A stretch of 64,000 nt of DNA from Streptomyces carpinensis (lineage in GTDB: Bacteria; Actinomycetota; Actinomycetes; Streptomycetales; Streptomycetaceae): positions 1 through 64,000 of the forward strand of contig NZ_MUBM01000016.1 of NCBI RefSeq assembly GCF_002154505.1. Direction: 5' to 3'. Position numbers and translations under genes: made by a program. Each line of letters opens with the position of its first letter. Positions within the stretch are counted from its first letter, which is position 1. Under the pieces are notes generated by a model. That model was not told where the DNA came from. It saw only the letters and a program-made list of their open reading frames with translations, and did no database searches. This document shows positions 45,682-53,282 of the stretch, one piece after another.

Positions 45682-45936
45682 GCACTAGGTGTGCTGTCCC
45701 GGCGAGGACACCGAGGTTGCGCCACCGCCGGATGCGTCTTTGGCGTTCCTCTTCTCGCTCGCGGGCCACGCGAGCGGTGGTGGTGCGGGCCTTGATGTCA
45801 GCGGCCATCGTTGCGGGCCTCCACGGGGGCGGGAACGAGCTGGGTCGGCACGACGACCGACCGGGATGCGACGGGGCGGCGCCGAGCGCGGCGGATCAGG
45901 AAGGTGATGGCGGCGGCCGCGGTGAGGGCGCCGTCA

Positions 45937-46286
45937 GCTCCAAGGACCCGGATCTGGTGTTGGCGACCACCGAGGCCGGCGTCGCCCGGAGCACCGACGG
46001 CGGCAAGACATTCGGCAAGGGATCCGGCCAGATCCTGGCCTTCCTCTCCTGGCCCAAGACCGACGCTCTGAACGGCGTCGACCTCTCAGGCGGCCTGCAC
46101 CGCAGCGTCGACGGCGGTGCCACATGGCAGAAGACCGGCACGGTCCCGGGCGGCCAACCGGCGGCCCTGACCGCCCTCGACACCGGCCACGTCCTGGCCG
46201 CTACCAAGGACGGCGTGTACGAATCCCGCGACGGCGGCAAGACCTTCGTCAAGCGGCTGTCCATATCCGCAGGCGAAGGTCACTGA
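45937..46286 (+). pseudogene. BNR-repeat (F510_1955-type) hydrolase remnant
   Basis: About 115 residues of the C-terminal part: DPDLVLATTEAGVARSTDGG, LHRSVDGGATWQKTGTVPGG and VYESRDGGKTF, with Asp-box (SxDGGxTW) repeats. The signal peptide and first repeats of this secreted sialidase/photosystem-stability-like family are missing. The frame is open upstream to 45717 but that part is unrelated. Confidence 0.7.
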
Positions 46287-46850: not shown

Positions 46851-47005
46851 TCAGGCGACGTTGTGATACCCGTGGATGAGCCCGCCGAGCACGCCGAGCA
46901 CGTCGTCACGCTGGATCCGCTGCGCGGGAAACGGGATGACGCCGGGGTCGTCAGCAGGGGCTCGAAGCTGCAGGGTCGGTGGGGCCGCCCAGAGTTGTAG
47001 CGCTT
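46851..47005 (-). mobile_element. Integrase-core transposase remnant (C-terminal end)
   Basis: The reverse strand reads KRYNSGRPHR and, after a one-base shift, LQLRAPADDPGVIPFPAQRI then RDDVLGVLGGLIHGYHNVA. This is the end of Streptomyces rve-type transposases. It joins directly to the alcohol dehydrogenase remnant. Confidence 0.65.
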
Positions 47006-47039
47006 GATCGGCCACCGGATCGCCCTCGTGACGTACCGG

Positions 47040-47258
47040 GTCTTCGAGGATGTACTCGCGCTACAGGTCATGACGTCGGCCGACGGCACCCGCTCGCAGG
47101 TTCCGCGGCTGCTGCACGAGTACCGAGCGGGCCGCCTCAATCTGGCTGACCTCGTGACCCGGACCTACCGCCTCGAGGACATCGACGAAGCCTATGACGA
47201 CATGCTCGAAGGCCGAGTCATTCGTGGGCTGATCGTGTACGACGAAAGCGACTACTGA
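47040..47258 (+). pseudogene. Zinc alcohol dehydrogenase remnant (C-terminal end)
   Basis: About 60 residues: PRLLHEYRAGRLNLADLVTR and TYRLEDIDEAYDDMLEGRVI, then RGLIV. This is the end of class III/NDMA-type alcohol dehydrogenases, with the catalytic and Rossmann domains lost to the adjoining transposase scar. Confidence 0.7.
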
Positions 47259-47443: not shown

Positions 47444-48805
47444 TCAGCTCTCCAGCACCGTTGTGCGGGCCAGTGGCAGGTGTGCGGTCTCTCGGAAGGA
47501 GAAGTGGACGACCAGGCTTGAGACGACGGCCAAGCCCATCAGGTAAAAGCCCGGGGCGAGCGGGGTGCCGGTAAGAGTGACCAGCCCAGTTGCCACGAAC
47601 GGGGCGGTGCCGCCGAAAAGTACGTAGGCGGCGGTGTAGCCCAGCGCGGAACCGCTCGCGCGCAGTTGGCCCGGGAACATCTCGACCATGGCCGGTACGT
47701 TCGACGTGCCGATCACCGCGACGAGTACCGCCAGGACCGCCGTTCCCACCAGCGCTCCTGCCAGGGATGTTCCGATCAGCCAGAAGGCGGGCAAGGTGAT
47801 CACCGCGAAGCCCGCGCACGCCGTGAATAGCATCGGCCGGCGCCCGTAGCGGTCGCTGGCCGCGGCCATCAGCGGGCAGGCGGCGCTGTAGGCGAGCATG
47901 GCTACGCACCCCGTCAGCATGGCCTGCGACTTGCTGTAGCCCACCTCTTCCGACATGTATGCGATCAGGTAGCTGCTCATCAGGTAGTAGCCGACGGCGT
48001 TGGTGATGCTGTATCCGAACAGCGTGAGCACCTGGCGGCGGCATACCCGCCACGCGTCGCGGATCGGCGCATGGCGTACCGCCTCGCGCCGTTCCATGGA
48101 CCGGAAGACCGGGGTGTCTTCGATTCGGCTGCGGAGATACAAGCCGATCAGGCCGAGCGGGCCGGCCAGCAGGAAGGGTATGCGCCAGCCCCAGCTGCGC
48201 AGGGAGGCTTCATCCAAGGAGGTGGTGATGAGCAGGCCAGTGAGGGAGCCTGCCACCGACGCCAGGCCGACGGTGATGGCGACGACGCTGGCAAAGCGGG
48301 CGCGGCGCCCTTCGGGAGCGTACTCCATGATGAACGCTGAGGCGCCGGTGTACTCGCCGCCTGTGGAGAACCCTTGGACGGCCCGCAGCAGGAAGAGCAG
48401 CACGGGCGCGGTGATGCCGATGACCGAGTAGCTGGGCAGCAGCCCGATCAGGAGCGTCGAGCCGCTCATGCACAGCACGCTGAGCGCGAGCATCCGGTTG
48501 CGGCCGATGCGGTCACCGTAGCGGCCGAAGAACACCGCGCCCAGCGGGCGTGCGACGAAGCCGCCCGCGAAGATGGCCCAGGTCGCCAGCAGGGCTGCGG
48601 TGGTGTCGTACTGGGGGAAGAACAGGCTCGCGAGGGTGGCCGACATGACGGCGTAGGCGCCCGAGTCGAACCATTCGACGAAGTTGCCGATCGCGGTGGC
48701 CGCGGCTACCTTTCGGCGGATCGCGGGTGCTTCGGCCGGGGCAGGTTCAGGGACGGTGGTGCCGTCCGCGGTTATGGGCGCGCTGCTGGGGCGGTGGCTC
48801 GTCAT
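47444..48805 (-). CDS. MHS-family (metabolite:H+ symporter) transporter
   Basis: A 453-residue major facilitator protein with 12 predicted helices. The family signatures are seen: GNFVEWFDSGAYAVMSATLA, the RPLGAVFFGRYGDRIGRNRM loop, FSTGGEYTGASAFIMEYAPE and a SDRYGRRPM repeat loop. MHS members import dicarboxylates, aromatic acids, proline or betaine. ATG 48805 overlaps the ligase stop by four bases (ATGA), so it is the third gene of the ech-ligase-transporter operon and likely imports the acid activated by the ligase. Confidence 0.94.
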   Translation of the reverse strand: MTSHRPSSAPITADGTTVPEPAPAEAPAIRRKVAAATAIGNFVEWFDSGAYAVMSATLASLFFPQYDTTAALLATWAIFAGGFVARPLGAVFFGRYGDRIGRNRMLALSVLCMSGSTLLIGLLPSYSVIGITAPVLLFLLRAVQGFSTGGEYTGASAFIMEYAPEGRRARFASVVAITVGLASVAGSLTGLLITTSLDEASLRSWGWRIPFLLAGPLGLIGLYLRSRIEDTPVFRSMERREAVRHAPIRDAWRVCRRQVLTLFGYSITNAVGYYLMSSYLIAYMSEEVGYSKSQAMLTGCVAMLAYSAACPLMAAASDRYGRRPMLFTACAGFAVITLPAFWLIGTSLAGALVGTAVLAVLVAVIGTSNVPAMVEMFPGQLRASGSALGYTAAYVLFGGTAPFVATGLVTLTGTPLAPGFYLMGLAVVSSLVVHFSFRETAHLPLARTTVLES

Positions 48806-50442
48806 CTCGGTCCGTCCTTCCGGCTCGGTGTCCCTGTTACAGGGCGGGGGGCGGGTGTGCTGAGGTCACGGGCGCGGAGGGCGGCGCGCTGGATCTTTCC
48901 GGTGGCCGAGCGGGGTAGTTCGTCGATGAACTCGATCAGTCGCGGATAGGCGAAGCGGGAGTGGGACCTGCGGGTGTGGTCGGAGATTTCGCGGGCCAGT
49001 TCCTGGGAGGGCTGGTGGCCGGGTGCGAGTTCGATCCATGCCTTGACCGCCTGGCCGCGGACTGGGTCGGGGACGCCCACGACACCGGCGTCGGCGACGG
49101 CGGGATGTTCGCGCAGGACGGCCTCCACTTCGTACGGACCGACACGGTACCCGGAGGTCTTGATCACGTCGTCGGTGCGGCCCAGGAACCAGAAGTATCC
49201 GTCCTCGTCGCGCACCGCCTGGTCCTTGGTGTGGTACCAGGTGCCGCCGAACGTCTCGGCGGACGCTTCAGGGCGCTGCCAGTAGCCGAGGGGGAACTGC
49301 GGGTTGGAGCCCGCCCGCAGGCAGATCTCGCCCGGCTCTCCCACCGGGACCTCATGTCCGTCATCGTCCAGGAGTGCGACGTCCCAGCCGGGCAGGGGGC
49401 GGCCCATGGAGCCGGGCTTGACGGGCACGCCTGGGTAGTTCCCGAGCAGCGGATAGGACTCGGTGGAGCCGTAGTAGTCGAGCAGGGTGACACCGAACTG
49501 GTCGCGGAACCAGTCGATGAGATCGGGGGTGAGCGGCTCGTTGGAGCAGCAGACCACTCGCAAGGCCTGCGGGTACCGGGTGCCCGCGTCCGGTATCTCT
49601 TCGCGCATTTTGCGCAGGAATGTGGGGTTGACCAGGGCTGTGGTGACCTGGTTGCGGGCCATGCTGGCCAGCAGGCCGGCCGGGTCGAATCCGCCGGCCG
49701 GGCGGTAGACCAGGTGCACGGCGCCCGCTCTCAGCGGGCCCATCAGCTTGGCCATCGACCAGGCCCAGTCGCCCGCTCCGTAGAACACGTCCCCGGGCCG
49801 TAGGTCGTGGCAGTAGCGGAACTCGTTGTGCCCCAGGAGGGTGCGGTGGGCGTGGACGATGCCCTTGGCCGCGCCGGTGGTACCGGAGGTGTAGAAGATC
49901 AGCGCCGGGTCGTCGGCCGCGGTATCGGCCGTGGTGAACTCGGGTGGGTGGGTCATGATCGCCGGATCGTCCACGTCGACGACGGTGCCGTCGAAGCCGT
50001 TCGCGCGGTGCAGCGCCCCGGACTCTGTGACGAGCACTGTGGCGCCGGAGTCGGCGAGCCGGTAGCGGATCGGCTCGTCGGCCCACAGCAGGGACATCGT
50101 CACCAGGATCGCGCCGGTGCGCAGCACGCCCAGGTAGGTGGCCGGGGTGTCGGGGCGCTGCGGCAGCAGTACCGCCACTCGGTCGCCCTTGCGAACTCCG
50201 AGGGCGTGCAGGTGGGCGGCGATTTGTCGGGAGCGGTCCTGGATCTGCTGCCAGTGGACCTCCTCCCGGTGGCCGGTATGGTCCTCGAAGATCAGTGCCA
50301 GCCGGTCGCCCGGGTGTCGGTCGGCGACGTCGGCGGCCATGTTGTACGTCTTTGGGACGCTCCAGTGATGGCCTTCGACGAGACGCGGGTAGGCGGTCTC
50401 GCCGTCGTGGACGGGATCGGCGGTGGTGACGCCGGTGGACAT
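48802..50442 (-). CDS. Acyl-CoA synthetase (AMP-forming)
   Basis: A 546-residue ANL-superfamily ligase. The P-loop is FYTSGTTGAAKGIVHAH, A5 is DYYGSTESYPLLGNYPG, the hinge region is GRTDDVIKTSGYRVGP and the catalytic Lys is in RSATGKIQR. It resembles medium-chain or aromatic/alicyclic acid:CoA ligases. ATG 50442 has AAGGAG eight bases upstream. It lies between the enoyl-CoA hydratase gene (32-base gap) and the transporter gene (four-base overlap). It forms an acyl-CoA for the hydratase-type enzyme. Exact acid unknown. Confidence 0.94.
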   Translation of the reverse strand: MSTGVTTADPVHDGETAYPRLVEGHHWSVPKTYNMAADVADRHPGDRLALIFEDHTGHREEVHWQQIQDRSRQIAAHLHALGVRKGDRVAVLLPQRPDTPATYLGVLRTGAILVTMSLLWADEPIRYRLADSGATVLVTESGALHRANGFDGTVVDVDDPAIMTHPPEFTTADTAADDPALIFYTSGTTGAAKGIVHAHRTLLGHNEFRYCHDLRPGDVFYGAGDWAWSMAKLMGPLRAGAVHLVYRPAGGFDPAGLLASMARNQVTTALVNPTFLRKMREEIPDAGTRYPQALRVVCCSNEPLTPDLIDWFRDQFGVTLLDYYGSTESYPLLGNYPGVPVKPGSMGRPLPGWDVALLDDDGHEVPVGEPGEICLRAGSNPQFPLGYWQRPEASAETFGGTWYHTKDQAVRDEDGYFWFLGRTDDVIKTSGYRVGPYEVEAVLREHPAVADAGVVGVPDPVRGQAVKAWIELAPGHQPSQELAREISDHTRRSHSRFAYPRLIEFIDELPRSATGKIQRAALRARDLSTPAPRPVTGTPSRKDGPR

Positions 50443-51424: not shown

Positions 51425-51439
51425 ATATCGCAGCGATAT
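51425..51439. promoter_or_regulatory. LysR-type box (T-N11-A) upstream of the LysR gene
   Basis: Perfect palindrome ATATCGC-A-GCGATAT, with T and A 11 bases apart as in LysR boxes. It ends nine bases before the LysR ATG and lies in the divergent promoter of the enoyl-CoA hydratase operon, so it probably served autoregulation and operon control. Confidence 0.6.
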
Positions 51440-51448
51440 GGTGCGCCG

Positions 51449-52378
51449 ATGGAGCTTCGCCACCTGCGTTACTTCGCCGTACTCGCCGAGGAGCTGCACT
51501 TCGGCCGGGCCGCCGAGCGCCTGCACATGGCTCAGCCCCCGCTGTCCCAGCGCATCCGCGACCTGGAACGCGAACTGGGCGTACGACTCTTCGACCGAAC
51601 CCGGCCTCGGATCCAGCTGACCGAGGCAGGCGCGCTGCTGCTGGAACACGTGCGCCCCGTCCTGGCTGGTGTCGACACCGCCCGTTAAGCGATGCGCAGG
51701 CTGCGGCCCGGGGAGGCGGGTGCTTTGCGCGTCGGCGTACCGCCGGACACCAAACCTTCCGTGCTGTGCACGCTCACCGAGAGCTTCTCCCGACGCGTCC
51801 CCGACGTCCTGATCGACCTGCACGAACTGACCACCGACGAGCAGCTGGTACGGCTGCGGGAGGGTGAACTGGATGCGGGGGTGGTCCGCCATCCCGCGGA
51901 CACGGTCGGACTGGACTCCGGCCCACTGGCCCGGCGGGACCTGGGAGTGGTGCTCCATGAGGATCATCCCTGCGCCGAGGGCGACGCACCGGTCCGACTG
52001 CGGGACCTCGACGGGGCATCCCTGGTGATCTTCCCGCGGATGATGGCGCCACGGCTGTACGACCACATGCTGCTGGCATGCCGGGACGGGGGCTTCCTGC
52101 CTGGCGCCATTCGGCACGCCCGCAACCCCGACTTCGTGCACGGGCTGGTGCTCGCGGGCCGAGGCGTGCACCTGAACGAGGCCCCAACCACACCACTCGT
52201 CTCCGGCCTGGTATGGCGCCCCCTCGAAGGCGCGCCCCTGGCCTGGCTGACGTCAGTGGTCTGGGTCCCCACCCGGCACAATGAGGCCATCGCGGCCTTC
52301 ACCGACGCGGTAGGTGAAGGTCTAGTTGAGGCGGGACACCACCTGGCCGATGGAACCGACGGGGACAAGGCGTCCTGA
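51449..52378 (+). pseudogene. LysR-family regulator with an in-frame stop codon
   Basis: A LysR gene of 310 codons. The N-terminal helix-turn-helix is normal (MELRHLRYFAVLAEELHFG, RLHMAQPPLSQRIRDLE). Codon 80 is TAA (51686-51688) where GAA (Glu) is expected in the linker helix; the frame continues perfectly afterwards as RRLRPGEAGALRVGVPPD and a complete substrate-binding domain to 52378. One base change explains it. Unless read through, it leaves an 79-residue DNA-binding stub; the second part has no good start. Its target is probably the divergent hydratase-ligase-transporter operon. Confidence 0.9.
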
Positions 52379-52780: not shown

Positions 52781-53282
52781 ATGTCCGGCGCCGCCGTCAA
52801 CGTAGGCGTTCGAGAGTTCGCCGTCCCGGCCAGGCTGCCGAACCGCGCCACCTTCACCGCACGACGCCGCGGCCGCTCGCGAGATGCGGGACGCCCTGGT
52901 GACCGTGCTGCTCGCCCACTCCGGCGACGAGCCCAGCCTCGGCGCGCCACTGGAGGCCGCCGAGCAGCACCTGCGCCGCGTCGGACGGCTCTACCCCCTC
53001 GTCACCGTCGTGACCGCCGAAGGCGCCCGCCTGTCATGCGAGCAGACCGGGGTCGCCCGCGCGTTCGCCGGTGTGCTCGCCGCAGTCACGACCTTCGCCC
53101 AGCGTGGCGACTGGGGACGCGTCAAGGCCTGCCGTAACCCTCCTTGCCACTTCGGCTTCTTCGACCGCACCCGCAACGGTGGCGCCCTGTACTGCAGCCC
53201 CAGCTGCGGCTCCGCCGTGTCCATGCGCCAGTACCGGGAGCGCAAGCGGCGGCGGGAGTCCGCGGCAACCGACGACAGCTGA
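52781..53282 (+). pseudogene. CGNR zinc-finger regulator, frameshifted
   Basis: From ATG 52884 the frame gives 132 residues: REMRDALVTVLLAHSGDEPS (ABATE-type domain end), then VKACRNPPCHFGFFDRTRNG, YCSPSCGSAVSMRQYRERKR. The last is a CGNR-type zinc finger with CGSA in place of CGNR. The missing N-terminal part (LPNRATFTA) lies upstream in another frame, joined near 52865 by a one-base indel. The internal ATG at 52884 could still give a shortened protein with the zinc finger. Original function: DNA-binding regulator. Confidence 0.7.

What the first reader, a model, noticed from the sequence alone, without database searches (positions are those of the whole stretch)
51425..52378. LysR regulator inactivated by a single in-frame TAA, with an intact LysR box
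Codon 80 is TAA where GAA would restore a full-length LysR protein; the frame is otherwise perfect across 310 codons. The perfect ATATCGC-A-GCGATAT box remains just before the start. The mutation looks recent because nothing else has decayed. The divergent hydratase-ligase-transporter operon should therefore be uncontrolled or silent, unless the stop is read through or is a sequencing error.
Basis: seen in the sequence. Interest (0 to 1): 0.6.

Follow-up and report, generated by a model that had tools for sequence, protein, structure and literature searches.

The report
Recently stopped LysR regulator gene
A Streptomyces gene for a switch protein that probably turns on a small carboxylic-acid uptake operon carries one stop codon in its middle where the related genomes examined have an intact codon; most likely a recent loss of function (or an assembly error), which is an ordinary kind of event.

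Summary
The stop is in the assembly: TAA at 51686-51688, codon 80 of a 309-codon LysR-type gene (51449-52378, +). It separates the DNA-binding domain (PF00126) from the effector domain (PF03466), five residues before the predicted end of the linker helix. All 25 other ortholog rows (20 distinct genomes) have GAG there and no stop in the aligned part, so TAA is two substitutions from the conserved codon. Nothing else has decayed: no private replacement at 180 otherwise invariant columns; terminal-branch replacement/synonymous ratio as in intact relatives. The gene belongs to a conserved four-gene module, lysR/hydratase/CoA ligase/MFS transporter (complete in 16 of 18 named loci). The box is conserved as ATATC-N5-GATAT (exact in 18 of 21); the perfect inner palindrome is not. 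It is the only exact match in the 10.4 Mb genome. Best reading: a recent nonsense allele that leaves the divergent operon without its activator, so more likely uninducible than unleashed (inferred). An assembly error cannot be excluded without reads. A regulator split in two by reinitiation at the ATG 3 nt downstream is possible but unlikely. Low interest.

The parts
51449..52378 (+). LysR-type regulator gene, 309 codons interrupted by one in-frame TAA
   Evidence: orthologs
51449..51688 (+). first open part: 79 codons, winged helix-turn-helix and most of the linker helix, then TAA
   Evidence: PF00126 E 2.5e-25; model helix 59-84
51686..51688 (+). in-frame TAA, codon 80; GAG in 25 of 25 other ortholog rows
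51692..52378 (+). second open part: 228 codons from ATG 51692 (3 nt after the stop), the effector domain; this Met is also present in the 25 other ortholog rows
   Evidence: PF03466 E 7.5e-31; codons and context
51425..51439 (.). ATATC-N5-GATAT, T-N11-A type LysR box; conserved exactly in 18 of 21 upstream regions; single exact site in the own genome
51437..51442 (+). TANNNT (TATGGT) -10-like element, first T 12 nt before the ATG: predicted leaderless lysR transcript
   Evidence: same element 12-13 nt before ATG in 18 of 21 rows; position rule from passages of PMC3160421
50475..51266 (-). enoyl-CoA hydratase/isomerase family gene, divergent from lysR
   Evidence: PF00378 E 1.4e-47; synteny
48802..50442 (-). 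AMP-forming acyl-CoA ligase gene
   Evidence: PF00501 E 9.9e-71; synteny
47444..48805 (-). MFS transporter gene, best NCBIfam match metabolite/H+ symporter (below that model's cut-off)
   Evidence: TIGR00883 E 7.9e-106, 354.5 of 443.45 bits; PF07690; synteny

Best explanation
A conserved, dedicated LysR-type activator gene that has very recently acquired a nonsense codon in this genome. In the intact form (inferred from the family and the conserved anatomy) the protein binds the single ATATC-N5-GATAT box between the divergent genes, represses its own leaderless promoter, whose -10 overlaps the box, and, on binding a small carboxylic acid or its CoA ester, activates the hydratase-ligase-transporter operon that takes up and CoA-activates that acid. 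In this genome only a 79-residue DNA-binding fragment would be made in frame, so the operon loses inducible activation and stays at basal level. Shown: the stop, the conservation of the codon, the intact rest, the conserved module and box. Inferred: activator role, effector class, silence of the operon.
For: Stop and intact frame; domain split; GAG in 25 of 25 other rows, 20 distinct genomes, and no stop in their aligned parts; ancestral codon GAG by parsimony; no private replacement at 180 otherwise invariant columns among 15 Streptomyces rows; G000 terminal branch 0 replacement / 11 silent before and 11 / 30 after the stop, ratio 0.37 against 0 to 1.24 in 20 others; no second ortholog in the genome, next best LysR 50% identical; module complete in 16 of 18 named loci, the other two lying at contig ends; box in 18 of 21 and single in the genome. 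A second clean nonsense codon (TAG) stands inside a MFS gene of the same genome (G000:C113), so such alleles occur in this assembly.
Against: No reads, no second strain: an error at one base cannot be excluded, and the absence of any decay fits an error as well as a recent mutation. The draft has 824 contigs. Selection on both halves could also mean that both are still used.
Confidence: 0.62

Rival explanations
1. Sequencing or assembly error: the real gene is intact and works as in relatives.
For: The gene is otherwise under normal constraint; draft of 824 contigs; one interrupted codon only; reads not available. Another clean TAG in a MFS gene and an AMP-binding domain broken between two frames at C167:28543 could be errors too.
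Against: Two bases differ from the codon conserved in 25 of 25 rows, so one error suffices only if the true codon is GAA. Internal stops are rare in this assembly: AMP-binding 0 of 44 stretches, MFS_1 1 of 147, LysR_substrate 0 of 57 after the one flagged TGA proved to be the natural end; completeness 99.92%.
Confidence: 0.25
2. Split two-protein regulator: ribosomes stop at codon 80 and restart at ATG 51692, giving a DNA-binding protein of 79 residues and an effector-domain protein of 228 residues, both still used.
For: ATG 3 nt after the stop; reinitiation in E. coli falls by only 5, 20 and 70% at a +2 nt distance for three gene pairs (passages of PMC10666635). The cut falls at the domain joint: helix 59-84 then effector domain from strand 92; the related ItcR effector domain, residues 80-292, was made alone as a homodimer that binds itaconate (PMC9636186, passages and one section); BenM's DNA-binding domain was solved alone with DNA (passages of PMC11739112; chain 3m1e/4ihs/4iht). 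Both halves look constrained.
Against: Met82 is present in the 25 other, unsplit rows, so the restart site is inherited, not newly made. Seen in one genome of 21. No Shine-Dalgarno sequence seen by eye before 51692. A LysR-type protein is thought to pass the effector signal through the covalent linker helix (recalled).
Confidence: 0.06
3. The 79-residue fragment alone binds the box and acts as an effector-blind repressor.
For: It keeps the whole HTH_1 match and 21 of 26 helix residues; DNA-binding domains of BenM and YhaJ dimerise through the linker helix (passages).
Against: The linker helix is cut short; short fragments are often degraded (recalled); no data here.
Confidence: 0.05
4. Regulated or suppressor-tRNA read-through of TAA yields a full-length protein.
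For: Constraint continues after the stop.
Against: Only this ortholog has the stop; no signal known to me for TAA read-through here; the one literature search run for Streptomyces and stop codon readthrough returned nothing on the point in the 8 of 31 listings seen. The genome's tRNAs were not examined (no tRNA in the window).
Confidence: 0.02

Closest known systems
Intact orthologs in Streptomyces, Saccharopolyspora and Streptomonospora (e.g. S. niphimycinicus, S. hygroscopicus subsp. hygroscopicus NBRC 13472)
   Same: Same gene, same divergent hydratase-ligase-transporter neighbours, same box
   Different: Codon 80 is GAG and the frame is continuous
ItcR, itaconate-responsive LysR-type regulator (PDB 7W06-7W08, PMC9636186)
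   Same: Best match by sequence in the PDB, E 1.7e-40 over residues 1-260; same domain order
   Different: Distant; effector of the present family unknown
BenM / CatM of Acinetobacter (PDB 2H99, 2H98)
   Same: LysR-type, E 1.3e-33 and 1.2e-28; BenM recognises T-N11-A (title in the reference list seen)
   Different: Different operon; intact
Recent nonsense pseudogenes of bacterial regulators
   Same: One stop in an otherwise intact and conserved gene
   Different: Nothing noteworthy; error not excluded here

Membership tests
LysR-type transcriptional regulator (LTTR) | N-terminal HTH_1 domain | tested here: met
   PF00126 E 2.5e-25, residues 3-61 of the first part
LysR-type transcriptional regulator (LTTR) | C-terminal LysR_substrate domain | tested here: met
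   PF03466 E 7.5e-31 in the second part
LysR-type transcriptional regulator (LTTR) | one continuous polypeptide joined by a linker helix | tested here: not met
   TAA at codon 80 in this assembly; helix 59-84 only when read through
LysR-type transcriptional regulator (LTTR) | T-N11-A box between divergent genes | tested here: met
LysR-type transcriptional regulator (LTTR) | effector-dependent activation of the divergent operon | not testable with these tools
   no expression data
Recent nonsense pseudogene | in-frame stop absent from orthologs | tested here: met
   0 of 25 other rows have a stop
Recent nonsense pseudogene | little or no further decay | tested here: met
Recent nonsense pseudogene | stop confirmed by independent reads | not testable with these tools
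   no reads or second strain held
Termination-reinitiation gene pair | start codon within a few nt of the stop | tested here: met
   TAA 51686-51688, ATG 51692
Termination-reinitiation gene pair | downstream product made | not testable with these tools
   no protein data

The most novel reading that the evidence does not exclude
The stop has turned a LysR regulator into a translationally coupled two-protein system, a separate DNA-binding protein and a separate effector-sensing protein cut exactly at the domain joint and remade by reinitiation at the inherited ATG 3 nt downstream, with both halves still under selection.
Probability: 0.05. Interest if true: 0.6.

Novelty: new member of a known kind. 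Interest (0 to 1): 0.15.

Why it matters
If the stop is real, this strain is a natural knock-out of a dedicated regulator beside an intact operon and an intact box, useful for showing what the regulator does by comparison with relatives. As biology it is ordinary: regulators are lost by single nonsense mutations all the time. Only the split-regulator reading would be surprising.

Tried and rejected
Paralog stop: the LysR row at G000:C255 flagged '1 TGA' looked like a second broken LysR; searches show an intact 306-residue ORF whose natural stop lies inside the match. The TGA flagged at C405 is likewise the natural end. Stops flagged in the hydratase of L036 and the ligase of L049 lie at query residues 262 of 263 and 528 of 546, i.e. 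at or near the natural ends. The MFS TAG at C113 is truly inside the matched stretch.

Old decay: rejected. Cluster mutation: codon 79 (CGT) and codon 80 together differ from most relatives at three bases, but CGT at codon 79 also occurs in L041, so only codon 80 is private.

Mobile origin: no relative found in viral contigs nor a near DNA match in plasmids; the near mode would miss anything below about 85% identity.

Closer genomes: 392 genomes of the genus gave 86 with E <= 1e-60, of which 7 besides the own genome are orthologs of 80% or more; 150 'relatives' gave only the own genome and G021. No second strain of the same species could be reached.

Literature: (Streptomyces, pseudogenes, nonsense mutation, LysR) gave 1 listing, off topic; one search gave 31 papers, 8 listings seen; (split LysR) gave 1 listing, off topic. 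I make no claim that split LysR proteins are absent from print.

Full report
Observation. The window sequence has ATG at 51449, TAA at 51686-51688 and TGA at 52376-52378, all in one frame. The 79 residues before the stop match HTH_1 (E 2.5e-25) and the 228 residues from the ATG at 51692 match LysR_substrate (E 7.5e-31). The reading frame has 309 codons plus the terminal stop. The window lies at G000:C68:1-64000; the assembly has 10,405,645 bases in 824 contigs, completeness 99.92%.

The codon in relatives. A genus search of 392 genomes gave 86 with E <= 1e-60; 7 besides the own genome are orthologs at 80-89% identity (G360 is reported in two pieces of one open frame because of an in-frame insertion). 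A scan of named genomes gave 32 loci: 14 Streptomyces, 3 Saccharopolyspora, 1 Streptomonospora, and 14 cyanobacterial loci at about 30%. Codon 80 was read in 25 ortholog rows besides the own one; five rows are the same contigs fetched twice, leaving 20 distinct genomes. It is GAG in 25 of 25, and none has a stop in the aligned part. Five more distant LysR rows printed (L002, L003, L011, L012, L016) have other sense codons there. The parsimony ancestor of the own gene has GAG. TAA is therefore two substitutions away. Either GAA came first (GAA is 34 of 142 Glu codons in six window genes) or TAG did.

Age of the stop. Among 15 Streptomyces rows the own gene has no private replacement at 58, 120 and 2 otherwise invariant columns (residues 1-79, 81-292, 293-309); other rows have 0-3 and 0-6 in the first two segments. 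The own hydratase, ligase and transporter have 4 of 161, 7 of 351 and 8 of 292. On the terminal branch of a 21-row tree the own gene has 11 silent and 0 replacement changes before the stop and 30 silent and 11 replacement after it (ratio 0.37; the 20 other rows run from 0 to 1.24). The stop is recent relative to this branch, or it is an error, or both halves are still used; these data do not separate the three.

Module and box. All four genes lie in the same arrangement in 16 of 18 named loci; in the other two (L033, L034) the contig ends within or before the hydratase gene. ATATC-N5-GATAT stands exactly in 18 of 21 upstream regions. In the three Saccharopolyspora rows the box runs into the start codon and was not counted; read across the start, L048 is exact and L047 and L049 have one mismatch. 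The five inner bases vary, so the perfect 7-A-7 palindrome is not the conserved feature. In the own genome the site occurs once; the reversed control pattern also occurs once, so a single match is about what chance gives for the pattern, and the evidence for function is its conservation in place. A TANNNT element begins 12 nt (16 rows) or 13 nt (2 rows) before the ATG in 18 of 21 rows, the position reported for leaderless genes in high-GC bacteria (passages of PMC3160421; about 21% leaderless mRNAs in S. coelicolor, passages of PMC4895711). In 14 of these 18 it overlaps the box; in the other four (L034, L036, L043, L050) the box lies further upstream. A second conserved block, CATGCAAACAG in most rows, lies about 55 nt on the hydratase side of the box; by eye it could hold the -10 of the divergent operon, which would put the box near -66, the usual place of the LysR recognition site (recalled). 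The consensus scan found no sigma-70-like promoter here.

Where the cut falls. The read-through model (mean pLDDT 82.4; residues 82-85 below 50) has one helix 59-84 and the first effector-domain strand at 92-97. The stop removes the last five helix residues and the whole effector domain. The related ItcR effector domain, residues 80-292, was produced alone and is a homodimer (PMC9636186, passages and section 6). The inherited Met82 gives an ATG 3 nt after the stop, within the short distances at which reinitiation is efficient in E. coli (passages of PMC10666635).

Mechanism. Most likely the intact protein is a dedicated activator of the divergent operon, and the stop leaves that operon uninduced. 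The closest solved regulators are ItcR (E 1.7e-40) and BenM (1.3e-33); the ligase is nearest to 4-hydroxybutyrate-CoA ligase (6e-85), the hydratase to 4kd6 (1.1e-67), and the transporter's best model is the metabolite/H+ symporter family, below its cut-off. A small, possibly unsaturated, carboxylic acid is a reasonable guess for the substrate; none was identified. The genome has no second ortholog; its next best LysR is 50% identical, on the same contig.

Error or mutation. Internal stops are rare in this assembly: 0 of 44 AMP-binding stretches, 1 of 147 MFS stretches (a true in-frame TAG at C113), 0 of 57 LysR_substrate stretches after checking the one flag. This count does not see stops that fall between domains, such as the present one. 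One AMP-binding domain is broken between two frames (C167). I put a real recent nonsense allele at 0.62, error at 0.25. The need for two base differences does not by itself separate them.

Verdict. Observation confirmed; interpretation partly supported; an ordinary recent pseudogene or an error; interest low.

Noticed in passing
window 47004-47258 (+): C-terminal remnant of an NDMA-dependent alcohol dehydrogenase (TIGR03989 positions 318-370 of 370, E 3.9e-18), just beyond the transporter gene.
   Followed up: partly
window 45717-46286 (+): Remnant of an F510_1955-family glycosylhydrolase (NF045728 positions 143-226 of 246, E 6.7e-23), so two gene remnants flank the operon's far end.
   Followed up: partly
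G000:C113:52212-53165 (L068): MFS transporter gene with one in-frame TAG inside an otherwise open match: a second clean nonsense codon in this genome.
   Followed up: partly
G000:C167:28343-29490: AMP-binding domain split between two frames at about 28543, a likely frameshift.
   Followed up: no
window 52884-53282 (+): CGNR zinc-finger protein (PF11706, E 2.2e-11) of 132 residues downstream of lysR; none of the 18 named loci matched it in the same search.
   Followed up: no
G000:C68:94830-95702 (-), L002: LysR paralog, 50% identical, on the same contig 42 kb from the broken gene.
   Followed up: no
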